From Streptomyces sp. NBC_00654 (lineage in GTDB: Bacteria > Actinomycetota > Actinomycetes > Streptomycetales > Streptomycetaceae), in contig NZ_JAPEOB010000001.1 in assembly GCF_026341775.1 (NCBI RefSeq), positions 4,340,001 through 4,404,000 on the forward strand: a DNA stretch of 64,000 nt, written 5' to 3'. The stretch's first letter is position 1. The number at the start of each line of letters is the position of its first letter. This document shows positions 17,135 through 28,350 of this stretch, piece after piece. The position numbers were made by a program, and so were the translations under genes. The notes under the pieces were generated by a model. The model was given only the letters and a program-made list of their open reading frames with translations. It made no database searches and was not told the DNA's origin.

Positions 17135-17923
17135 ATGGCAGCGGAGCGGAGCAGTGGCGACATCCTGGACGCGGCCGTCCACGTCCGTGAGGCCGCCAGG
17201 AGCGCCACGGCCGGCGCGGCGGGCGTCGACACGGTTCTGGCGGCGCTGTCGGACGTGGTGGCGTACGACCATGCCTCCCTGGCCCGGTGGGATCCACTGC
17301 GCCGGCGCCACACCACGCTGGCCGGGAGCTACCCGGAGGACGCCACGTCCTACATCGAGACCCGCCTCCACCGGGACCCGGTGTTCCCCGTGCTCCGCAG
17401 CCCGGACCGGGGCGGGCTCTGGCTCGGGGACGTCCCCGGGCAGTTGCTGGTGGCATCGCCGGGCTTCCAGGACGTGCTGTGCCCCCTCGGCATCGAGGAC
17501 GGCGTGGCCCAGTGCCTCTTCGCCGCCGACGGCCGGTACGTCGGCATGCTGAACGTCAGCACCCGCAGACCACGGCGCGCCCCGGATCCGGCGCGCGCCG
17601 TGGTCACACTGCTCACCGAGGCACTCGCCGCCGCGGTCGCCACCGGCGCGGGCCCGTCGCCCGAGGAGACCGCCGCGGCCGAGCCCGCGGCGGGCGCGCG
17701 GCCCCCGGAAGCGCGGCGGTTCGGCGGGCTCTCGCCCCGGGAGCTCCAGGTGCTGGCCGAACTGACGGTCGGCCGTACCAACCGGGAGATCGCCGAGCGG
17801 CTCTACATCACCCCGCGCACCGTGGGGACCCACATCGAGCACATCCTCGCCAAGCTCGACCTCCCCAACCGCTCGGCGGCCGCCGCCCGAGCCGTCGCCT
17901 GGGGCGTCGAACCCTCCCGCTGA
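17135..17923 (+). CDS. LuxR-family regulator with GAF-like sensor
   Basis: This 262-residue protein ends in a LuxR DNA-binding domain at about residues 197-255: LSPRELQVLAELTVGRTNRE, then IAERLYITPRTVGTHIEHIL. The N-terminal 160 residues look like a GAF-type small-molecule domain (VVAYDHASLARWDP, VPGQLLVASPGFQDVL). A linker rich in alanine and glutamate separates the two. It lies 31 bases after the amidohydrolase and is probably in the same transcript. It may sense the substrate or product of that enzyme, which is inferred from position. Confidence 0.85.
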   Translation: MAAERSSGDILDAAVHVREAARSATAGAAGVDTVLAALSDVVAYDHASLARWDPLRRRHTTLAGSYPEDATSYIETRLHRDPVFPVLRSPDRGGLWLGDVPGQLLVASPGFQDVLCPLGIEDGVAQCLFAADGRYVGMLNVSTRRPRRAPDPARAVVTLLTEALAAAVATGAGPSPEETAAAEPAAGARPPEARRFGGLSPRELQVLAELTVGRTNREIAERLYITPRTVGTHIEHILAKLDLPNRSAAAARAVAWGVEPSR

Positions 17924-17971: not shown

Positions 17972-18646
17972 TCAGACCGCCATCGCTTCCTGGGTCCACC
18001 GGCTCACACGGTAGGGGACCCACCAGGCCAGGGGGCCGAGATGGAGGACGAGCTTCTCCTCGGTGAAGTCGTCCAGGGCGTCCTTGGCCACGGAGTCCTG
18101 CGGGGCCCCGTAGGAGAGCTCCCCGACAGCGTGGCGGTAGTGCGGTTCGTCCGCCGTGAAGCGCTGGAGGTTGCCCCAGCGGCGGTCGCGGATCTGGAGG
18201 AAGCCGGGGCCGTTGCGCCACAGGCACTTGCCCAGGTAGTGGCCGTTCCGCCAGGTGGAGAGTGCGGAGTCGGGCTCGGAGGCTCCGCGCAGGGTCCGGG
18301 GCGGCTGGAGATGGCTGAGGGCCTGCCAGTCATCCGGACGTGCCGGGTCCAGCCGGAGGTCCCATTCGACCAGTACGGCGCGGGCGGTGAGGTCCCGGAC
18401 CAGGCTGAGTGCCCGCGCGGTGCGGCGTGCTCCGGCGAGGTCCCCCGTCGCCGTGAGGTCCACGGCGGCCGGCAGGGCCACGCGGCGTGCGCCGAGTTCC
18501 CAGAGCCGGTCGCTCTCGGACGCCTCGGGGCCGGTCAGGTCGAGACTGCCCAGAGACATCCCGGGCAGGGCGCAGGCGGCTTCGTCGTAGTCGCGCCAGG
18601 CCGTGACGCGCAGGGTGTCCGCGGTGGTGTCGAGGGCTGAGTCCAT
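17972..18646 (-). CDS. DUF5825 family protein, RiPP-associated
   Basis: This 224-residue protein resembles the DUF5825 family, which is known mainly beside RiPP radical SAM C-methyltransferases. It has LRVTAWRDYDEAACALPGMS at the N-terminus and WRNGHYLGKCLWRNGPGFLQ then IRDRRWGNLQRFTADEPHY in the second half. The ATG at 18646 has GGAG 10 bases upstream; an ATG at 18682 lacks a site. The gene lies 105 bases after the radical SAM gene on the same strand. It is probably a helper of that enzyme, e.g. substrate recognition or a second modification. Its biochemical role is unknown. Confidence 0.75.
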   Translation of the reverse strand: MDSALDTTADTLRVTAWRDYDEAACALPGMSLGSLDLTGPEASESDRLWELGARRVALPAAVDLTATGDLAGARRTARALSLVRDLTARAVLVEWDLRLDPARPDDWQALSHLQPPRTLRGASEPDSALSTWRNGHYLGKCLWRNGPGFLQIRDRRWGNLQRFTADEPHYRHAVGELSYGAPQDSVAKDALDDFTEEKLVLHLGPLAWWVPYRVSRWTQEAMAV

Positions 18647-18751
18647 GGCAGGGAGTCTCCGGCTCGTGGGGTTCGCTGGCATCGGGCTGGGCTGGGTTGG
18701 GTTGGACTGGAGGGATGCGGACGCCGTCGCGGCCGACAGCGGGGCGGGGCC

Positions 18752-20743
18752 TCAGGCGAGTACGGCGTCACGGTCCGGCTGAGCGCCGGTGTCCGCTTCG
18801 TTGTCGGACGCGGACGGGGACGCGGACGGGGACGCGGACGGGTTCGGGGACGCGGTCCCGGGTGCCGCGTGCGCATGACGCATGAAGTCCAGACGCAGCA
18901 GGTTCTCGTTCACGGCGGACGGCGCGAGATGCACGTACTGGCCGCCGTCGGTGAAGAGAAGCCCGAGTTCCAGCCAGTGGGCCAGCAACGCTTCGACGTC
19001 CGCCCCGGTACGGCCGTGGCCGGGTATCCGGACCGTCGCCTTGCGGAGGACCGAGGCCGGTGCGTGCGGCTGGTCCAGGAGACGGAAGACCGCGGTCTCG
19101 AAGGGGTCGGTGAGCTCCATCACCCGCCAGGCGAAGGAGCGCCGAGCGCTGACGAGGACGATCCGGTCACCGAGGTCGGTATGTGTGAGACGGGCGTCGG
19201 TGTGGTGCTCCTTCCAGAGCGCCAGGGCATCGTTGAGAGCCGATACGGTGACCTCCCCGACGCCGCGCTCGGGGGCCTCGAAGACGTAGGCGAGGTCGTA
19301 CAGCTCCTCCTCCGGCAGGTCGTAGGTGAAGCGGTAGTGCGCCTCCGGCCGCAGCCCGTCGAACCCCAGCGACGGCTGGTTGAAGTACGGGCTGAAACGT
19401 TCGATGGCGATCCGGGCGGAGAGATCGACCGGCGGGTCGAGATGTTCCAGCGCCGGGATCTGACCGATGACCCCTTCGTAGTCCTTCGCGCTCTCGCCGG
19501 GAAAACCGTGGAGGTAGTTCCACGAGACGGACAGTCCCGTCTCCGCCCCGTCCCGGAGCATCCGTACGTTCTGGCAGCCGCTGACGCCCTTGTCCATCAG
19601 GTCCAGGACCCGTTTGTTGAGGCTCTCGATGCCCGGCTGCACATAGATGAGACCGGCCTCGGCCAGGGTACGCAGCTGGTTGCGCCGCATATTGGCCTTG
19701 ATCTCGACGTGCAGCCGCAGGTCGTACCCGCTGTCGATGATGCGGGGCAGCACGGTGGAGAGATAGCCCATGTCGAGGATGTTGTCGACGACGTACATGT
19801 CGAGCACCCGGTGCTTGCGCGCCAGGTCCATGATCTCCTCGTAGAAGACGTCGGGGCTCTTGCTGCGGAACTGCATGAAGGAGCCGTTGAGTCCGCAGAA
19901 GGTGCAGTGGTGCTTCTCGCCCCACCAGCACCCGCGAGCTCCCTCGACGACGAGTTTGGGCTCGACCCAGTTGCGGGCTACGGAAGCGGCCAGGCGCTCG
20001 AAGTACCCGCTGTAGTCGGGCGACAGGATCGTCGCGGGCGGCAGCGGACTCGATGCCATGGGATTCGCGGTGCTGGAGCCGTCTTCGGTCCGGTGGCAGA
20101 GCCCGGGGACCCCGGAGAGGCTCTCCCCGGCGGTGAGCGCGCTGAGCAACTGGGGGAACGCGGCCTCTCCCTCGCCCCGTACGACGTAGTCGAGGAAGGG
20201 GAAGTTGCGGTGCAGCGCCGCGCCCTGCTCGGCGTCGCAGTTGGCGCCGCCGATGACCGTCCTGATGTGCGGAGCGAGCCGCTTCACCTGCCTGGCCGCC
20301 GCCAGCGCGGCGGTGTTCTGCTGGAAGGTGGACGTGAAACCGACGACGTCCGGTGCCTCGCCGACGATCCGCCGAGCGATCTCCGCGACGAAGTCCGGTG
20401 CCATCCGGTGCAGTTTATGGGACATCTTCATCCGGGTCTTGCTCAGCTTGGTGCGCATCGCCTCGGTGAACTCCGCCTCGCGCCACGACGGGTCGTCGTA
20501 GAGGGCCGAGGAGAAGACCCAGTCGCCGCACCCCATGAAGTACGAGGACAGGGAGTAGTACTCGTAGTCGGTCGGCGTGAACTCGGTGCGTGCCGTGACC
20601 CAGTCGGTGAACTCCAGGTTTGCGTGGAGCACCGTCGCCGTGGCACCGGGAACGCGCTCGTCCACGCTGCGCTTGAGGATTCCCAGGGCGAGTGACGGAA
20701 GGTCGATGGGTGACCAGGGCATATTGACCAGCAGAACACGCAC
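18752..20743 (-). CDS. RiPP maturation radical SAM C-methyltransferase (cobalamin-binding type)
   Basis: This is a 663-residue protein. Residues 1-200 form a B12-binding-like domain (VGFTSTFQQNT, VIGGANCDAEQG, VVRGEGE). The radical SAM core starts at about 265 with the cluster motif C272-x7-C280-x2-C283 (GCWWGEKHHCTFCGLNG), spaced unlike the usual CxxxCxxC but as in the rSAM 'ocin'-type RiPP family. The segment YVQPGIESLNKRVLDLMDKG is also typical. GTG 20743 is chosen as start for the AAGGAG 6 bases upstream. It should place methyl groups on unactivated carbons of a precursor peptide. The C-terminus is a Ser/Pro repeat. A candidate precursor lies upstream at 21062. Confidence 0.88.
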   Translation of the reverse strand: MRVLLVNMPWSPIDLPSLALGILKRSVDERVPGATATVLHANLEFTDWVTARTEFTPTDYEYYSLSSYFMGCGDWVFSSALYDDPSWREAEFTEAMRTKLSKTRMKMSHKLHRMAPDFVAEIARRIVGEAPDVVGFTSTFQQNTAALAAARQVKRLAPHIRTVIGGANCDAEQGAALHRNFPFLDYVVRGEGEAAFPQLLSALTAGESLSGVPGLCHRTEDGSSTANPMASSPLPPATILSPDYSGYFERLAASVARNWVEPKLVVEGARGCWWGEKHHCTFCGLNGSFMQFRSKSPDVFYEEIMDLARKHRVLDMYVVDNILDMGYLSTVLPRIIDSGYDLRLHVEIKANMRRNQLRTLAEAGLIYVQPGIESLNKRVLDLMDKGVSGCQNVRMLRDGAETGLSVSWNYLHGFPGESAKDYEGVIGQIPALEHLDPPVDLSARIAIERFSPYFNQPSLGFDGLRPEAHYRFTYDLPEEELYDLAYVFEAPERGVGEVTVSALNDALALWKEHHTDARLTHTDLGDRIVLVSARRSFAWRVMELTDPFETAVFRLLDQPHAPASVLRKATVRIPGHGRTGADVEALLAHWLELGLLFTDGGQYVHLAPSAVNENLLRLDFMRHAHAAPGTASPNPSASPSASPSASDNEADTGAQPDRDAVLA
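18807..18842. repeat. Three tandem 12-bp repeats in the radical SAM 3' end
   Basis: Three exact copies of GACGCGGACGGG encode the SASPSASPSAS tail of the radical SAM protein. This looks like slippage expansion in a disordered C-terminus. Confidence 0.85.
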
Positions 20744-20872
20744 GGGGGCTCCTTGGCAGTGGTGCGGCGGGCAGGGGCGCACAAGGCACCGGAGGAATCG
20801 GGAGGGTCCGGGGAGAAGGAGAAGGGCCGGCCCGGTGCGCGGGCACGGGACCGGCCCCCGGGAGGGACCAGT

Positions 20873-21060
20873 GCGTGTGTCGAAAGTCCTGCCAGGCTCG
20901 CGACGCCCGGCACGCGCGCTCGCCGCGTTGTCGGCGTTGTCCGCGTTGTCGGAGTGTCCTCGTACGTCCAGTACGAGGACACTCCTCCGCCGTGCGATCG
21001 CACGCACCGGACGCCGTGAGCCCCGCCCTTCGGGCGGACGGCGCTACTTTCGACACACGC
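20873..21060. mobile_element. MITE-like element of 188 bp with 15-bp terminal inverted repeats
   Basis: The ends are GCGTGTGTCGAAAGT (20873-20887) and its exact complement (21046-21060). Between them are no gene but several nested dyads: the hairpin 20951-20985, a 14-bp palindrome around GCGATCGC at 20991-21004, a CCGCCC/GGGCGG hairpin at 21023-21037, and three GCGTTGTCG-like repeats near 20931-20957. It starts one base from the stop codon of the peptide gene. No target-site duplication is evident. It could instead be a purely RNA-structural leader. Confidence 0.5.
20951..20985 (-). terminator. Strong hairpin between peptide gene and radical SAM gene
   Basis: A perfect 15-bp inverted repeat (GGAGTGTCCTCGTAC and its complement) has a 5-base loop. 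It lies 77 bases after the stop of the 40-residue peptide gene and 208 bases before the radical SAM start. Such hairpins after precursor genes let more precursor than enzyme mRNA be made; here it is either that or part of an inserted element. Confidence 0.65.
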
Positions 21061-21061
21061 C

Positions 21062-21184
21062 CTAGTTCTCGATGTCCGCTTCCTCGGCGTTGCGGATGGG
21101 CACCGTGATGGTGATGCTGATGCCCGGCTTGCGGTTCTCCTCGTCGCCCGCGAGCGGGTCGTTGTTGATGATGTCCTTCTGCAT
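21062..21184 (-). CDS. Candidate RiPP precursor peptide (40 residues)
   Basis: This 41-codon frame runs from the ATG at 21184 to TAG at 21062-21064. GGAAAGG, within the 3' end of the S9 peptidase gene, lies 10 bases before the ATG, and the two genes are 7 bases apart. The peptide begins MQKDIINNDPLAGDEENRKP (residues 1-20), an acidic leader-like part. Residues 21-32 read GISITITVPIRN, alternating beta-branched residues, and the tail is AEEADIEN. Valine, isoleucine and threonine beta-carbons are known methylation sites in RiPPs modified by cobalamin radical SAM enzymes. The position between peptidase and methyltransferase supports a precursor role. It has no cysteines. Confidence 0.75.
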   Translation of the reverse strand: MQKDIINNDPLAGDEENRKPGISITITVPIRNAEEADIEN

Positions 21185-21191
21185 GATGTGT

Positions 21192-23084
21192 CTACCTTTC
21201 CGTGAGGCGTTGAGCCGTTCCGTTCGCGGCCGGTTCGGGATCGCTCGCCGGCCGGCCGGACTCCCCCCGCCTGGTGGAGGGGGGCGCTTCGGGGGTGGCG
21301 CGTGGACGGCCGCGGAGTTCGCGGTCGAGGAAGACGAGGGCGCCGCGCAGGACGCTCAGGTGGTCCCGGCCGTCGTATCCGTCGTGGCCGGTGTCCAGCC
21401 ACAGCGCCTCGTGGCGCTTGCGGTGGGTGACCAGCTCGTCCAGGTAGTCCCGGATCTGACCGGGTGGACACTTCGCGTCGTGCGTCGCCGCGACGACCAG
21501 CAACGGCGCGTCGAGGTCCGGGACATAGGTGTGCGGTGAGCTCCGCGCGTAGCGCGCGGGGAACTCCCGCGGAGTCCCCCCGAAGAGCCGCTCGTCCAGT
21601 GTGCGCAGGGCGGGTGTGGTGGTCGCGTGCGCGTGGGCGAGGTGGGCGACCGGTTTCACGGCGACGCCCGCCTGCCACAGGCCGGGGCGGGTTCCCAGCG
21701 CCAGCAGGGTGAGGTAGGCGCCCCAGGAGGTGCCCCAGAGGGCGAGTGCCCGCGGGTCCGCCCAGCCGCGCGCGACCAGGTCCGCTTGGACCGACGCGAG
21801 GTCGGCGACCTGGGTGAGCCCGACTCCCTCCGTCATCGCGTTGCGCCAGGCCGGCCCGTACCCGGTGGAGCCGCGGTAGTTGACCCGGGCGACGGCGAAG
21901 CCGGAAGCCACCAGGGAGTGCAGGGCACCGTCGTAGGCGTCGCGGTCGTGGTCGGCGGGACCGCCGTGGACGAGGAACACCGTGGGCGCCGGCGCGGACA
22001 CCCCCTCGGGCAGGGTGACGAGGGTGTGCACCGGCCCGTCGGGGCCCGGTGTCCACAGATCGCGCGGTACGCCGGGTACACGCGGGGGGAGATGCGGAGG
22101 GGAGGGCAGCGCGGTACCGGCGGTGGAGAGTGCGCGCGGCGGGGTGGCGGTACTGGTCCAGAGCGTGTGTACGTCGCCGTTCACCTGCTCGGAGGCGTCC
22201 AGCAGGGTGCCCGGGGCCGTGGGCAGTACGGTCAGCCGGCGGGCGGTGAGGTCGGCCCGGTGCAGGACACTGCGGCCGTGCCGGTCCTGGCGGATCAGTA
22301 CGGCGCGGCCGTCGGGGCACCAGCGGCCGGTGATCTCCGTGTCGAACGCGCACCACAGGTGGGTGATGAGCGGCTGGCCCGGGGACCAGGTGGCAAGGAG
22401 GTAGCTGCCCTGCCACTCCCGTACGAGCAGCAGGTCCCGCTGAGCGGGAAGGGGCCCGAACCCGAGGGACCACAGGGCTCCTTCGGGTTCTTCCAGCACG
22501 GCGTGCCGGGTGCCGTCGGTGCCGAACACGGTGACCGCGCTCGCGGAACGGGCCTGCGCACTGACGGCCAGCAGGTCACCGGCGGCGGTGATCCCGGTCA
22601 GATTCGCGTGATGGGGGAGACGGGCCACCGCGTGGGCCCCACCACCGCGCGGGCCGCTGAACACGGTGGTGCCTTCCGGGTCGCCCAGGGCGACCGCGAC
22701 GGTGCCGTCGCGGCTCACGCCGAGACCGCGTGCCAGACCCGCCGGCACGCCGTGGAGGCCGTCGCGGGCCGGTCCGCCGTCGAAGGGCCGGAACTTCCAG
22801 CGGCCCACACCGCGGGCGTCCTCCTCGAACCACCACACATGGGCCTGGGTGTCGATGGAACCGTGGAAGGTGCCCAGCGGGTGGTCGGTCACCTGCCGGG
22901 CGGAGGCGGTCGTGGCGTCCCAGGTGAAGACCTCGCAGCGGCCGCCCGCGTCGGCGGTGAAGACCATCCGGTGAGGATCCGTCGCGCACACCTCGGGCAG
23001 CGCGTCGCGGGAGACCAGAAAGGGAGGGGGCGCTTCGCCCACCGCGCGGGTGCTCCCGGAATCGGCGGCGGAGGGGCCCGTCAC
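21192..23084 (-). CDS. S9 family peptidase (prolyl-oligopeptidase-like)
   Basis: This 630-residue protein starts at GTG 23084, which overlaps the MFS stop by 4 bases (GTGA). The N-terminal 370 residues form a beta-propeller-like domain. The C-terminal alpha/beta hydrolase part has VFLVHGGPADHDRDAYDG, the nucleophile LALWGTSWGAYLTLLA (GTSWG), the acid ATHDAKCPPGQ, and the histidine DTGHDGYDG. S9 enzymes cleave short peptides, so here it probably trims the modified precursor or its leader. There is no signal peptide, so it acts in the cytoplasm. The peptide gene is directly downstream. Confidence 0.88.
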   Translation of the reverse strand: MTGPSAADSGSTRAVGEAPPPFLVSRDALPEVCATDPHRMVFTADAGGRCEVFTWDATTASARQVTDHPLGTFHGSIDTQAHVWWFEEDARGVGRWKFRPFDGGPARDGLHGVPAGLARGLGVSRDGTVAVALGDPEGTTVFSGPRGGGAHAVARLPHHANLTGITAAGDLLAVSAQARSASAVTVFGTDGTRHAVLEEPEGALWSLGFGPLPAQRDLLLVREWQGSYLLATWSPGQPLITHLWCAFDTEITGRWCPDGRAVLIRQDRHGRSVLHRADLTARRLTVLPTAPGTLLDASEQVNGDVHTLWTSTATPPRALSTAGTALPSPPHLPPRVPGVPRDLWTPGPDGPVHTLVTLPEGVSAPAPTVFLVHGGPADHDRDAYDGALHSLVASGFAVARVNYRGSTGYGPAWRNAMTEGVGLTQVADLASVQADLVARGWADPRALALWGTSWGAYLTLLALGTRPGLWQAGVAVKPVAHLAHAHATTTPALRTLDERLFGGTPREFPARYARSSPHTYVPDLDAPLLVVAATHDAKCPPGQIRDYLDELVTHRKRHEALWLDTGHDGYDGRDHLSVLRGALVFLDRELRGRPRATPEAPPSTRRGESGRPASDPEPAANGTAQRLTER

Positions 23085-24451
23085 GAGGTGCTCCCGGTGT
23101 CCTTGAGCGTACGGGGATGGGCCAGGCCGGTGTACGCGGCGAGGGCGATGAGGGCCGCTGTGCAGCCGAGGGCGGGTCCGGCCGATCCCGCCCGTGCCGC
23201 GAGCAGCCCGGCCGCGGCGGGCCCCACCGCCGCGGCGCCTCCCGCCGCGGCGGCCAGGACTGCCCCGGCCCGGGCCTGGAGGTGCGGGGGAGTGGTCGCG
23301 ATGGTTCTGGACTGGAGCACGACGGTGGCGCAGGGCAGGATCAGGCAGACCCCGCCGAACAGCGCGGCGAAGGCCCATGGCGAACGGGCCGCGGCCAGCC
23401 CCGCGGCGAGCGGCACGAGCAGCCAGGTCACCGTGAGGAACGCGCGGGCGGCGCCGAGCCGTACCGCCAGCGCGGGAGCCGCGAGCGCGCCCGCGATTCC
23501 GGCCGCCCCGGACACGGCCAGGACCAGCCCGGTCGCGGTCCCGCTGTGGCCGTCGCGCTCCAGGGAGAACAGCACCCCGAAGTAGAGGGCGGACAGCGCC
23601 CCGTTCACGACCGCGGTCCACAGCGTGACCAGGCGCAGCAGCCGAGTGGTACCCACCAGACGCAGGCCCGCGCCCGCTTCGGTGAGCAGAGCCTCGCGGC
23701 GAAGCCGGCGCGCGCGACGGTCCGGGCCCTCGCGGGAGGGGCCCGTACAAGCCGTGCCGCGCTCCCCGTCCGCGGGCCGGTCCGTGGGAGCGGCCGCGGG
23801 GCCGGCCCCTGCCGCCGCACGCAGATCCGCACGCATGAACCCGACGCACACGGCGGTCACCGCGTAGGACAGGGCATCGACGACGAAGGGCCAGGCGCGG
23901 CCCAACTGGTAGAGGGCGCCCCCGAGCAAGGGGCCCAGGACCAGGGCGACGTTGTCCCCCACCTCCAGCCTGGCCACGAGGCGGGGGTAGCCCTCCGGCG
24001 GGCAGATAATGGCGACCGTCCCGCGGGCCGCGGCGTCGTAGGCGGCGGTGCAGAGACGTTCCACCAGCACGGCGCACAGCAGCAGGACCAGGGGCGGCCG
24101 GCCCATGGTCACCATGACGGACACGGTCGCCATGGCCAGAGCGGCCAGACCCGCGGACCAGAGCATCACCGTCTTCCGGGCGCCCCGGTCGGCGGGGACC
24201 GCCGCCAGTGGTCCCAGTACCAGCCCGAAGGCCGCGGACGCACCCGCGATCAGACCGACCGCGGCAGGGGAGTACCCCAGCGTGAGCAGCAACAGCGGGA
24301 GCACGATGCCCGAGGTCTGGGTCCCGAGAGCGTCCGCGGTGCTCGCCCACCAGAACAGGCGTACATCACGGGGCGAGGCGAGAGGGTCGGCCGCGGTCGG
24401 AACTGCCGGGCTGTCGCTCGCCCTGGAAGCCGGCGTCGCTGACATATTCAT
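23081..24451 (-). CDS. MFS transporter of the RiPP cluster
   Basis: This 456-residue protein has repeated hydrophobic segments, DVRLFWWASTADALGTQTSG at the start and GAVPADRGARKTVMLWSAG-like loop sequence typical of the MFS motif between helices 2 and 3 (AVPADRGARKT is visible). It begins the minus-strand operon that continues into the S9 peptidase and the peptide gene. A GGAGGAGAGGGGG tract precedes the ATG at 24451; a second in-frame ATG at 24445 is also possible. It probably exports the mature peptide and gives self-protection. Its hydrophilic loop near residue 200 is long and alanine-rich. Confidence 0.85.
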   Translation of the reverse strand: MNMSATPASRASDSPAVPTAADPLASPRDVRLFWWASTADALGTQTSGIVLPLLLLTLGYSPAAVGLIAGASAAFGLVLGPLAAVPADRGARKTVMLWSAGLAALAMATVSVMVTMGRPPLVLLLCAVLVERLCTAAYDAAARGTVAIICPPEGYPRLVARLEVGDNVALVLGPLLGGALYQLGRAWPFVVDALSYAVTAVCVGFMRADLRAAAGAGPAAAPTDRPADGERGTACTGPSREGPDRRARRLRREALLTEAGAGLRLVGTTRLLRLVTLWTAVVNGALSALYFGVLFSLERDGHSGTATGLVLAVSGAAGIAGALAAPALAVRLGAARAFLTVTWLLVPLAAGLAAARSPWAFAALFGGVCLILPCATVVLQSRTIATTPPHLQARAGAVLAAAAGGAAAVGPAAAGLLAARAGSAGPALGCTAALIALAAYTGLAHPRTLKDTGSTS

Positions 24452-25450: not shown

Positions 25451-26392
25451 TCAGGCCCCCGTGTCGTGCGGGGCCCCTCGGACGCCCTGATTTCCGTGCA
25501 GTTCCTCGACGGCCTCACGAGCCACCTCGCCGATGACCGCGTCGGCGCGCGGCAGCCTGGTGTCGGCGCGGGCGGCCTGGGTGAAGACCACGGCGGTGTA
25601 CGTACTGCCGTCGGGGAACTCGACCACCCCGGCCTCATGCCGCATCGCGCCGAACGTGCCGGTCTTGCCGTACACGGCGACATCGTCGTAGGGGAATCCG
25701 GACGCGAGCCGGTGGGTCCACGGCTGTCTGCTCATGACCGCGCGCATCACGGAGCAGTGTTCCCCGGAGGCGGCCCGGTCGGTCCAGATCGCCCTGAGGA
25801 GCCGTGCCATGTCCGCGGGTGTGGTGGACGCCTGCGTGACCGGGTCGTAGACCCCCGCGGGGACGATGTCGTCGTTGTCCGAGATCCGTGCCATCGCGGC
25901 GCTCAAGGATTCACTGCCGGTCTCCGCGACCAGACGGGCGAACGTGCTGACCACCCCGCCGTGGATATGCGTGTCGGGCATGCCGAGGCCGGCGCACATC
26001 TCGTCGACCACCCCGGGACCGACCGCGCGCAGTACCGCATGGGCTGCCGTGTTGTCCGAGATGCTCATCATGAGCACGACCATGTCGCGCAGTGACAGGG
26101 TGACGGGGTCCCGCAGGATGGAGATTCCCGTGGGACCGGCGACCCGCTCCCCGGGGTGCAGGGTCACTTGCGTGGCAGGGTCGATCGCACCGGTTTCCAC
26201 CAGCCGCCAGAAGGCGACCATCAGCGGCAGCTTGTAGACGGAGCCCATGGGTACGGGCTCTTCGGAGTCGACGGCGACGTGACTCGAAGGGTGATGCAGT
26301 TCCGCCACGTGCAGCCAGCCGCGGACCCCCGCGTCGTCGAACATCTTGCGGATCGTGCGTTCCACACGGCTTCCGCGCGGTGTTCCGCTCAT
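25451..26392 (-). CDS. Cytoplasmic beta-lactamase-fold serine hydrolase
   Basis: This 313-residue protein has the class A beta-lactamase/PBP active-site set: S51-V-Y-K54 (MGSVYKLPL), S112-D-N (SISDNTA) and K243-T-G (YGKTGTFG). I cannot find the ExxLN motif that carries the deacylating glutamate in class A enzymes. No signal peptide is present. It could therefore be a penicillin-binding or esterase-like protein and not a true beta-lactamase. The ATG at 26392 overlaps the LysR stop (ATGA), so the two genes are translationally coupled. Its inducer or substrate may be sensed by that LysR protein. Confidence 0.82.
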   Translation of the reverse strand: MSGTPRGSRVERTIRKMFDDAGVRGWLHVAELHHPSSHVAVDSEEPVPMGSVYKLPLMVAFWRLVETGAIDPATQVTLHPGERVAGPTGISILRDPVTLSLRDMVVLMMSISDNTAAHAVLRAVGPGVVDEMCAGLGMPDTHIHGGVVSTFARLVAETGSESLSAAMARISDNDDIVPAGVYDPVTQASTTPADMARLLRAIWTDRAASGEHCSVMRAVMSRQPWTHRLASGFPYDDVAVYGKTGTFGAMRHEAGVVEFPDGSTYTAVVFTQAARADTRLPRADAVIGEVAREAVEELHGNQGVRGAPHDTGA

Positions 26393-27267
26393 CCGGCCAC
26401 CGCCGTGCCGGAAAGGGTGTCCGCCAGCAGCCGGGCCGTCCCCGCGGACTCCGCGGAACCCCGGCGCCGCGGGTCCCACGCCACGCGCAGCCGCAGGGGG
26501 AGCGGCGGGTCCGTCGTCTGCCTCCGCACGACGCCGGTGGCCGCCAGGCTGTTGTCCGCCGTCACCAGTACGGCCTGGCCCGCCGCTACGAGAGCGAGTC
26601 CGGCCCGCTCGTCGGAGACCACGACCGTCCTCACCCGCCGCCCGCGGCTCGCCAGCGTGTCGACGAAGAGGTCGTGGGCCGCGGGTGCCTCGCCACGGGC
26701 GCGCACCGCGACGGGAAGCTCCCGGAGCACCGCCGCCAGGGTGTGCTCCGCGTAGTCGGCCGGGGTGAGGGTCCAGGTCGGCAGACGTACCACCTGACCC
26801 GCGGCCAGGCCGTGCAGCACGGCCGGATGCCGGACGACCGCGATGTCGAGGCGCCCGGCCGCGATGTCGGAGAGCAGCGTGGCGGTCGGTGCCATCGCCA
26901 CACCGATCCTGACCGGCGCTCCCGTCCGGACCGGTGCGGCCGCCACGTCGGCGGCCAGCCAAGCGGGTACCTCGGGTGTCAGCCCGATCCTGAGTCTGCG
27001 CCCGTCGGCGTGTTCACGGGCACCGGACTCCCGGAGCTCGGTGATCGCGGCGAGCGCCCTGCGCGCGTGGGGCAGCAGCAACGCCCCTTCCTCTGTGAGG
27101 GATACCCCCCGCTCGCGCTCGAACAGGCGCACCCCGAGCAGCGTTTCCAGTCTGCGCAGTCCCTGCGAGAGGGGTGGCTGGGTGATGCCCACGCGTTGAG
27201 CGGCGGTCCCGAAGTGTTCCTCCTCTGCCAGCGCGATGAAGATTTCCAGATGCCGTTCCGTCAGCAC
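26389..27267 (-). CDS. LysR-family regulator
   Basis: This 292-residue protein has a LysR helix-turn-helix at residues 1-62: LTERHLEIFIALAEEEHFGT, AAQRVGITQPPLSQGLRRLE. A C-terminal effector domain follows. It is divergent from the class A beta-lactamase gene and co-translated with the serine hydrolase gene. This divergent layout is that of AmpR-type control of beta-lactamase genes. A GATA-N9-TATC dyad lies 21 bases upstream of its start. Induction by beta-lactams or peptidoglycan fragments is plausible but not shown. Confidence 0.9.
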   Translation of the reverse strand: MLTERHLEIFIALAEEEHFGTAAQRVGITQPPLSQGLRRLETLLGVRLFERERGVSLTEEGALLLPHARRALAAITELRESGAREHADGRRLRIGLTPEVPAWLAADVAAAPVRTGAPVRIGVAMAPTATLLSDIAAGRLDIAVVRHPAVLHGLAAGQVVRLPTWTLTPADYAEHTLAAVLRELPVAVRARGEAPAAHDLFVDTLASRGRRVRTVVVSDERAGLALVAAGQAVLVTADNSLAATGVVRRQTTDPPLPLRLRVAWDPRRRGSAESAGTARLLADTLSGTAVAG

Positions 27268-27287
27268 TCCGCCCCCTGGCGTGCGGT

Positions 27288-27304
27288 GATATGGCTTCCG
27301 TATC
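27288..27304. promoter_or_regulatory. Candidate LysR operator
   Basis: GATATGGCTTCCGTATC contains an inverted GATA...TATC with 9 central bases, matching the LysR T-N11-A pattern. It lies between the divergent regulator and beta-lactamase genes. Confidence 0.4.
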
Positions 27305-27438
27305 GGAGCGATGCCGAGAGCGTATTCGACATGGCGCGGGACCGCAGGTTTGACTCGTTCGACTCGTCCGATGCCACGGGCCGTCCGCCCGCCGGCCGGA
27401 GCGTCACAGCACCTGCTCGCCCCTCGGAAGGGAACCTC

Positions 27439-28350
27439 TTGCCCGCCACCGGATCATCCCCGTCCCGTCGTACGGCGCTCGCCATCGGCACCGGCGCGGT
27501 ACTCGCCGCCCTGTCCTCGGGCGGTACCGCCCACGCCGCCTCCCGCGGCGAGCGCGTCACCGCACGGCTGAGGGCGCTCGAACGGCACCATTCCACCCGC
27601 CTGGGAGTGTTCGCGCGCAACACACGCACCGGCCGGACGGTGGCATACCGTGCGGACGAACGCTTCCCCATGGCCTCACTGTTCAAGACGATCGCAGCGG
27701 CGGGTGTGCTGCGCGATCTCGACCGCGACGGCGAGTTCCTGGGCCGTCGGATCCGGTACACCGCGGACCACGTCCGGAGGTCGGGCTACTCGCCGATCAC
27801 GGAGAAGTCCGGGAACCTCGCGCGCGGGATGACGGTCGCACAGCTGTGTGACGCGGCCATCCGCTACAGCGACAACACCGCGGGAAACCTGCTGCTCCGC
27901 GAGCTGGGCGGCCCGACCGCCATCACCCGATTCTGCCGCTCCATCGGGGACGGCCGGACCCGGCTCGACCGCTGGGAACCCGAACTCAACTCTGCCGAAC
28001 CCTGGCGCCCGACCGATACCACCACCCCGCGTGCCATCGGCCGGACCTACGAGAACCTCATCCTCGGCGACGCACTCGCCCGCCGCGACCGAAGCCGTCT
28101 CACCGGCTGGCTGCTCGCCAATACCACCAGCGGTGAGGAGTTCCGCAAGGGACTTCCCGCGGACTGGATCCTGGCCGACAAGACCGGCGGCGGGCGATAC
28201 GGCGGCAGCAACGACGTCGGCGTCACCTGGCCGCCCAACGGCGTACCCATCGTGATGGCCGTCCTGACGACCCGGGCCGAGGAGGACGCCCCCGCCGACT
28301 CCCCGCTCGTGGCAGAGACCGCCTCGTTGCTGGCATCGGCCCTCGCGTAG
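27439..28350 (+). CDS. bla: Secreted class A beta-lactamase (Tat signal)
   Basis: With the TTG at 27439 as start (AAGGGA 5-7 bases upstream) the protein has 303 residues and a Tat signal, SRRTALA at residues 9-15, followed by a hydrophobic stretch ending AHAA. An ATG at 27331 in frame has no RBS and would add 36 residues. The class A motifs are complete: S80-L-F-K83, S144-D-N146, E180-P-E-L-N184 (the deacylating glutamate) and K248-T-G250. It hydrolyses beta-lactam rings outside the cell. It is divergent from the LysR gene, which probably controls it. Confidence 0.85.
   Translation: MPATGSSPSRRTALAIGTGAVLAALSSGGTAHAASRGERVTARLRALERHHSTRLGVFARNTRTGRTVAYRADERFPMASLFKTIAAAGVLRDLDRDGEFLGRRIRYTADHVRRSGYSPITEKSGNLARGMTVAQLCDAAIRYSDNTAGNLLLRELGGPTAITRFCRSIGDGRTRLDRWEPELNSAEPWRPTDTTTPRAIGRTYENLILGDALARRDRSRLTGWLLANTTSGEEFRKGLPADWILADKTGGGRYGGSNDVGVTWPPNGVPIVMAVLTTRAEEDAPADSPLVAETASLLASALA

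What the first reader, a model, noticed from the sequence alone, without database searches (positions are those of the whole stretch)
17972..24451. Complete RiPP-type gene cluster around a cobalamin radical SAM C-methyltransferase
The minus strand holds, in order, an MFS exporter, an S9 peptidase, a 40-residue peptide gene, an inverted-repeat element, a radical SAM C-methyltransferase and a DUF5825 protein. Start/stop overlaps couple MFS and peptidase, and the peptidase lies 7 bases from the peptide gene. Families of these kinds are known in RiPP pathways; this particular combination and precursor are not ones I recognise as characterised.
Basis: partly seen in the sequence, partly recalled or inferred. 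Interest (0 to 1): 0.85.

Follow-up and report, generated by a model that had tools for sequence, protein, structure and literature searches.

The report
Clavusporin-type C-methylated peptide operon
This is a five-gene Streptomyces operon for making a small modified peptide, a close relative of the recently described clavusporin (surfactant peptide) operon, with a short mobile DNA element lodged exactly at the stop codon of its peptide gene.

Summary
The anatomy is real and correctly placed: MFS, S9 peptidase, 40-residue peptide, inverted repeat, TIGR03975 cobalamin radical SAM enzyme, DUF5825. The set is conserved: of 81 relatives chosen by the radical SAM gene, the peptide is in all 78 readable ones, S9 in 79, DUF5825 in 79, MFS in 75. 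Streptomyces clavuligerus has the same five genes in order, radical SAM 82% and peptide 77% identical. A B12-radical SAM/DUF5825 pair and a peptidase (MpcP) are already reported for clavusporins (passages), so this is a new member of a known kind. New details: the inverted repeat is a multicopy MITE in the CTAG of the peptide's stop codon, leaving the peptide intact, with a different MITE at the same spot in another genome; relatives share a strong hairpin after the peptide gene (74 of 77 with z below -1.5, control 0 of 75), displaced here by the MITE; leaders are conserved while cores vary; DUF5825 may end in a leader-binding-like winged helix (weak).

The parts
23081..24451 (-). MFS exporter gene (P0005), first gene of the operon
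   Evidence: PF07690 91.1 bits, cut-off 33.4; tblastn match in 75 of 81 relatives; its TGA overlaps the GTG of the next gene
21192..23084 (-). S9 prolyl-oligopeptidase-family peptidase (P0003), MpcP-like; triad S453, D536, H567
   Evidence: PF00326 111.9 bits; triad letters in 80 of 80 aligned sequences, window included; match in 79 of 81 relatives
21062..21184 (-). Precursor peptide (P0001) MQKDIINNDPLAGDEENRKPGISITITVPIRNAEEADIEN; likely leader 1-20, core from residue 21
   Evidence: Orthologue in all 78 readable relatives; 19 database proteins at E <= 0.01 including itself
20872..21061 (-). MITE (190 bp), terminal inverted repeats GGCGTGTGTCGAAAGT; target CTAG (21062-21065, contains the TAG stop), right copy reads CTGG (20868-20871)
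   Evidence: 48 matches in the own genome with 40 of 173 candidates scored, 14 of them nearly full length counting itself; CTAG on at least one side in 9 of 10 end pairs printed, window included; 36 end-pattern hits against 0 for the backwards control; empty site in L002 and L031
20822..20859 (-). Conserved intercistronic hairpin after the precursor gene, here separated from the stop codon by the MITE
   Evidence: z -2.7 here; 74 of 77 relatives below -1.5, control 0 of 75; changes on both sides with pairing kept in 8 of 12 consensus pairs
18752..20743 (-). Cobalamin-binding radical SAM enzyme, TIGR03975 (P0002); cluster motif C272-x7-C280-x2-C283
   Evidence: 604.6 bits against cut-off 281.85; PF02310 and PF04055; three Cys in 82 of 82 aligned sequences, window included
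17972..18646 (-). DUF5825 partner protein (P0004)
   Evidence: PF19142 248.1 bits; match in 79 of 81 relatives; model with mean pLDDT 89.8

Best explanation
This is a clavusporin-type (mpc-like) RiPP operon. Shown by sequence: the five genes, their conservation together, and the conserved leader and core pattern. Inferred: the 40-residue precursor is bound through its leader (QKDxI..DPL) by the radical SAM/DUF5825 pair; the cobalamin radical SAM enzyme adds methyl groups to unactivated carbons of the Ile/Val/Thr-rich stretch (GISITITV); the S9 prolyl oligopeptidase cuts after Pro20, perhaps also after Pro29; the MFS protein exports the product, which has a hydrophobic methylated half and, if the tail is kept, an acidic half, as suits a surfactant. 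A strong hairpin after the precursor gene probably keeps precursor transcript above enzyme transcript. In this strain a MITE has inserted exactly at the precursor stop codon without changing the peptide, so that the hairpin now starts about 200 bases after the stop.
For: Same five genes in the same order in S. clavuligerus pSCL4, with a 77% identical precursor that the PLSDB gene table does not list. Precursor in all 78 readable relatives; K3, D4, P10, L11 and R18 in 59 of 59 distinct precursors, P20 in 57, I/V at 22, 24 and 26 in 59. Cx7Cx2C in 82 of 82 and catalytic triad in 80 of 80. Conserved block ends at the five genes. Literature passages: a B12-radical SAM plus DUF5825 pair C-methylates amino acids in clavusporin biosynthesis (PMC12257519); MpcP is a prolyl oligopeptidase involved in removing the clavusporin leader (PMC12951456). 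Hairpin. MITE.
Against: The clavusporin paper itself is not held, so identity of the S. clavuligerus peptide with the clavusporin precursor rests on the name, the operon and recall. No chemistry can be tested here. In a clade with 66-74% identical radical SAM enzyme the precursor was recognised in 14 of 15 genomes, not in L196, and there the residues R18 and P20 are not constant. In the set Pro20 is Val in 2 of 59 (L078 and the second gene of L052; that script kept one of L052's two genes, and the other also reads Val), so cutting after Pro20 cannot be universal. MFS was not found in L061 and L090 although 10 kb upstream was held.
Confidence: 0.87

Rival explanations
1. A RiPP operon of the same parts in which the B12-radical SAM enzyme does something other than C-methylation, for example cross-linking, as PbsB does in the biphenomycin-like pathway.
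For: PbsB, a B12-radical SAM enzyme, forms a C-C cross-link between ortho-Tyr residues, so the enzyme class does not fix the reaction.
Against: The peptide from residue 21 on has no aromatic residue in this strain (most relatives have Phe30) and none of the five proteins matches an MNIO family; in the same paper the B12-radical SAM/DUF5825 pair is the methylating one. PbsB's own family membership was not tested here.
Confidence: 0.07
2. The operon is crippled in this strain: the MITE between precursor and radical SAM gene, with its own perfect 15-bp stem, cuts expression of the modifying enzymes.
For: The MITE lies between precursor and enzyme genes and carries a perfect inverted repeat, 20951-20965 with 20971-20985.
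Against: The five frames are open and the three Cys and the triad are kept; a different MITE at the same place in L191 also sits beside a complete precursor and a radical SAM start, which suggests tolerance (the radical SAM match of that genome, G044, shows one TGA inside the aligned range, whose place I did not examine).
Confidence: 0.15
3. The 40-residue frame is chance and the real substrate lies elsewhere.
For: Chance frames of this length are common here; L196 keeps the radical SAM gene without a recognised precursor in 1.6 kb upstream.
Against: Protein-level conservation in all 78 readable relatives at the same place with a conserved leader.
Confidence: 0.01

Closest known systems
Clavusporin (mpc) biosynthesis; Zhang, Li, Overton, Seyedsayamdost, Nat Chem Biol 2025 (title in a reference list and citing passages seen; paper not held)
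   Same: B12-radical SAM plus DUF5825 pair, prolyl-oligopeptidase-family peptidase; the S. clavuligerus operon has the same five genes in order and a precursor equal at 30 of 39 positions
   Different: Core GISITITVPIRN against SVGITITVPFRN; MITE at the precursor stop codon; hairpin displaced
TIGR03975 rSAM_ocin_1, RiPP maturation radical SAM C-methyltransferase
   Same: 604.6 bits against cut-off 281.85, positions 1-605 of 606
   Different: A Ser/Ala/Pro-rich C-terminal tail beyond the model
Biphenomycin-like pbs clusters and the DUF5825-bearing YHxYxY variants (PMC12257519, abstract, outline and passages)
   Same: B12-radical SAM; in the YHxYxY variants also DUF5825
   Different: No MNIO, arginase or aromatic core motif among the five genes here
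MITEs with IS5-like CTAG (YTAR) targets (the family preference is recalled, from no call)
   Same: Terminal inverted repeats, CTAG at the ends, many copies, too short for a transposase
   Different: Parent element not identified

Membership tests
Clavusporin-type (mpc) operon | B12-radical SAM enzyme adjacent to DUF5825 | tested here: met
Clavusporin-type (mpc) operon | Prolyl-oligopeptidase-family peptidase (MpcP-like) with intact triad | tested here: met
   role of MpcP from one passage
Clavusporin-type (mpc) operon | Orthologous operon and precursor in S. clavuligerus | tested here: met
   tblastn with the S. clavuligerus DUF5825 matched 16 S. clavuligerus plasmid records, one place in 15 and two in one; its chromosome was not searched
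Clavusporin-type (mpc) operon | That S. clavuligerus peptide is the clavusporin precursor | not testable with these tools
   Paper not held; recall and name only
Clavusporin-type (mpc) operon | C-methylated, surface-active product | not testable with these tools
   Needs mass spectrometry and tensiometry
TIGR03975 radical SAM C-methyltransferases | Score over curated cut-off | tested here: met
   604.6 against 281.85
TIGR03975 radical SAM C-methyltransferases | Cobalamin-binding domain and three cluster Cys | tested here: met
   PF02310 over cut-off; Cys in 82 of 82
RiPP recognition element (DUF5825 C-terminal domain) | Winged-helix fold like solved RREs | tested here: inconclusive
RiPP recognition element (DUF5825 C-terminal domain) | Sequence-profile similarity to PqqD (PF05402) | tested here: not met
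   No Pfam match; profile comparison probability 0.8% for the C-terminal part
MITE | Terminal inverted repeats, target duplication, multicopy, no transposase | tested here: met
   190 bp; here the duplication is imperfect (CTAG/CTGG)
MITE | Autonomous parent element in the genome | not tested
Biphenomycin-like clusters | MNIO (DUF692) enzyme | tested here: not met
   None of the five proteins matches one in Pfam or NCBIfam

The most novel reading that the evidence does not exclude
DUF5825 is the leader-recognition subunit of this enzyme pair (a half-barrel-like N-domain plus an RRE-like winged helix), reading a leader motif ([VIF]x[NGSD][DN]P[LI]) shared by cores as different as GISITITVP, GVGVVVYLRS, IVVIIVSS and GMIWINIPIGN; and the precursor-to-enzyme ratio is set by the conserved hairpin after the precursor gene, a junction that CTAG-seeking MITEs have entered at least twice, retuning the operon without touching the peptide.
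Probability: 0.25. Interest if true: 0.5.

Novelty: new member of a known kind. Interest (0 to 1): 0.36.

Why it matters
It places a putatively uncharacterised cluster in the clavusporin family and supplies about 60 distinct natural precursors with variable cores under a conserved leader, a ready set for testing which residues the C-methyltransferase accepts. The hairpin between precursor and enzyme genes, and the MITEs at the precursor stop codon, make precursor-to-enzyme stoichiometry in this operon directly testable.

Tried and rejected
Idea that the MITE truncated or rewrote the precursor C-terminus: rejected. The two nearest relatives (L002, L031) have 40-residue precursors ending in CTAGTCC with no insert, so a CTAG holding the stop codon most likely predates the insertion.

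Idea that the hairpin is ordinary GC-rich sequence: rejected by dinucleotide shuffles and by a control stretch in the same loci, the 60 nt before the DUF5825 tblastn match, which may include the first codons of that gene. It lacks a U run in the window, so a classical intrinsic terminator is not claimed.

Rfam: no match in the window at gathering scores. tRNA genes: none found.

More distant relatives (20 regions picked by me from the rows, L132-L151): a DUF5825 match by tblastn at E <= 1e-6 in 15 of 20 (radical SAM 43-59% identical), none in the five at 35-38%; a precursor recognised beside the radical SAM gene by a loose NDP[LI] pattern in 4 of 20 (L133, L134, L142, L143). Further pattern hits near the gene (L135-L137, L140, L144, L146) did not look like precursors; in 16 of 20 I recognised none.

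Literature: searches gave 2, 2, 3, 0, 2 and 3 papers; one search gave 208, nearly all unrelated in the 20 listed. Their listings only were seen, except the passages named in this report.

Full report
WHAT IS THERE. The minus strand of 17972-24451 holds, in transcription order, an MFS gene, an S9 peptidase gene whose GTG overlaps the MFS stop, a 40-codon gene 7 bases further on, a 190-bp inverted-repeat element, a cobalamin radical SAM gene and a DUF5825 gene. Family scans confirm each name: TIGR03975 at 604.6 bits (cut-off 281.85), PF19142 at 248.1 (25), PF00326 at 111.9 (22.6), PF07690 at 91.1 (33.4). The peptide matches no family. The radical SAM gene most likely starts at the GTG at 20743, since all its relatives align from there, not at the earlier start inside the element. 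The host is a Streptomyces by its neighbours: the nearest database DUF5825 protein is 96% identical, from Streptomyces sp. BE147.

IS IT CONSERVED. A scan of named genomes with the radical SAM protein gave 515 relatives, of which the best 80 were fetched, all titled Streptomyces; S. clavuligerus pSCL4 was added (L111). Of these 81 loci, tblastn at E <= 1e-10 finds S9 in 79, DUF5825 in 79 and MFS in 75. The two S9 misses (L054, L068) and the two DUF misses (L078, L109) are contig ends; of the six MFS misses four are contig ends (L035, L054, L068, L076) and two (L061, L090) had 10 kb upstream. The peptide was read in full in 77; L050 and L062 have runs of N (L062 after 26 matching residues), L054 and L068 are contig ends. 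In the unnamed genus sample 99 of 392 genomes have a match at E <= 1e-60; by my count of the rows 56 of 392, the window's own included, are at 66% identity or more. Of the first 30 loci of that search the peptide was found in 29, the other (L011) being a contig end. In 15 genomes at 66-74% it was found in 14; L196 lacks it by the pattern used in 1.6 kb upstream and I searched no further. Of the window's other ORFs of 120 codons or more between 6 and 36 kb none matches more than 4 of 81 loci at E <= 1e-20, apart from frames that overlap the five genes, so the conserved unit ends with the five genes.

WHAT IT IS. S. clavuligerus pSCL4 carries MFS, S9, radical SAM (82% identical over residues 1-625) and DUF5825 in the same order. 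Its precursor MQKDVIHNDPLAGDEENRKPSVGITITVPFRNAEDADED is not in the PLSDB gene table; it starts inside the 3' end of the annotated hydrolase gene and runs into the blank gap before the radical SAM gene (L111:7812-7931). By my count 30 of 39 positions equal the window's peptide. tblastn with its DUF5825 matched 16 S. clavuligerus plasmid records. PMC12257519 (abstract, outline and passages; [quoted passage not shown] PMC12951456 (one passage) names MpcP, a prolyl oligopeptidase, as involved in removing the clavusporin leader. The cited paper is not held. That clavusporins come from S. clavuligerus, and that the operon is widespread, is recall. I therefore file the operon as clavusporin-type.

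HOW IT LIKELY WORKS. Among 59 distinct precursors (window included) K3, D4, P10, L11 and R18 never vary, P20 is present in 57, positions 22, 24 and 26 are Ile or Val in all, 28 is Ile or Val in 54, 25 is Thr or Ser in 54, P29 is present in 54, and the tail is acidic in most. This gives a leader, a strand-like run with one hydrophobic face, and a charged end. Natural subclasses have GVGVV[VI]Y[LF]RS in place of the usual core, without Pro29, or still other cores; in the most distant of these R18 and P20 are also lost while KD and DPL stay. One locus (L052) has two precursor genes. Leader constant and core variable is the usual RiPP pattern. The radical SAM motif Cx7Cx2C is present in 82 of 82 and the S9 triad in 80 of 80 aligned sequences. 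Methylation of the Ile/Val/Thr run, cutting after Pro20 and export by the MFS protein are inferences from the clavusporin precedent.

THE INVERTED REPEAT. The element has ends GGCGTGTGTCGAAAGT and 48 matches in the own genome (40 of 173 candidates scored), 14 of them nearly full length counting itself. Of 10 end pairs printed, window included, 9 have CTAG on at least one side and 2 on both; the 20-base end pattern with up to one mismatch hits 36 times, the backwards control 0. In the window the left CTAG is the last C of the peptide gene plus its TAG stop; the right copy reads CTGG. The two nearest relatives have CTAGTCC at the same point and no insert, and the exact 11-base core of the element's ends occurs in only one of the 81 loci, elsewhere (L074). 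The peptide is therefore unchanged. L191 (another genome, radical SAM 70% identical) has a related but different MITE (75% identity over 177 columns, other terminal repeats) at the CTAG of its own precursor stop codon, which I read as an independent insertion.

THE HAIRPIN. In the relatives a GC-rich hairpin of 8-22 pairs begins 0-17 bases, mostly about 5, after the precursor stop. Against dinucleotide shuffles its mean z is -3.95, with 74 of 77 below -1.5; the 60 nt before the DUF5825 match in the same loci give +0.65 and 0 of 75. An alignment of 57 sequences (the window and 56 of 76 distinct relatives; I left 20 out, the GVGVVVY variants among them) gives 12 consensus pairs, 8 with at least one change on both sides that keeps pairing; a few rows (for example L033, L073) are poorly aligned. 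In the window it survives at 20822-20859, beyond the MITE. A role in holding precursor transcript above enzyme transcript is inferred.

VERDICT. Real, conserved, functionally coherent, and already known in kind; the new parts are the MITE at the stop codon, the conserved hairpin and the spread of natural cores.

Noticed in passing
window 20872-21061 and L191: Two different MITEs sit in the CTAG of the precursor stop codon in two genomes; TAG stop codons preceded by C are natural CTAG targets in GC-rich genomes.
   Followed up: partly
L052:9599-9898: Two precursor genes in tandem, cores GVSVKVTIPLRN and GVSVSVSRRRN, both with Val instead of Pro at position 20.
   Followed up: no
L133, L134, L142, L143: More distant radical SAM/DUF5825 clusters with other precursors (HNDPL...RPI[IV]VIIVSS and [QR]NDPI...RGAVV...) that share the NDP[LI] leader motif.
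   Followed up: partly
window 17135-17923 (+): LuxR-family (GerE domain) regulator convergent with the operon; its frame is not among those matched in 3 or more of 81 relatives, so probably not part of it.
   Followed up: partly
window 25451-28350: Two ORFs with beta-lactamase-family domains (PF13354) on opposite strands just upstream of the operon; starts are mechanical and overlap.
   Followed up: no
L071 and hits H1-H18: Copies of the radical SAM gene lie in plasmid-collection records (S. clavuligerus pSCL4, S. nigrescens SNP1, Streptomyces sp. NBC_01237), so the operon may move between strains.
   Followed up: no
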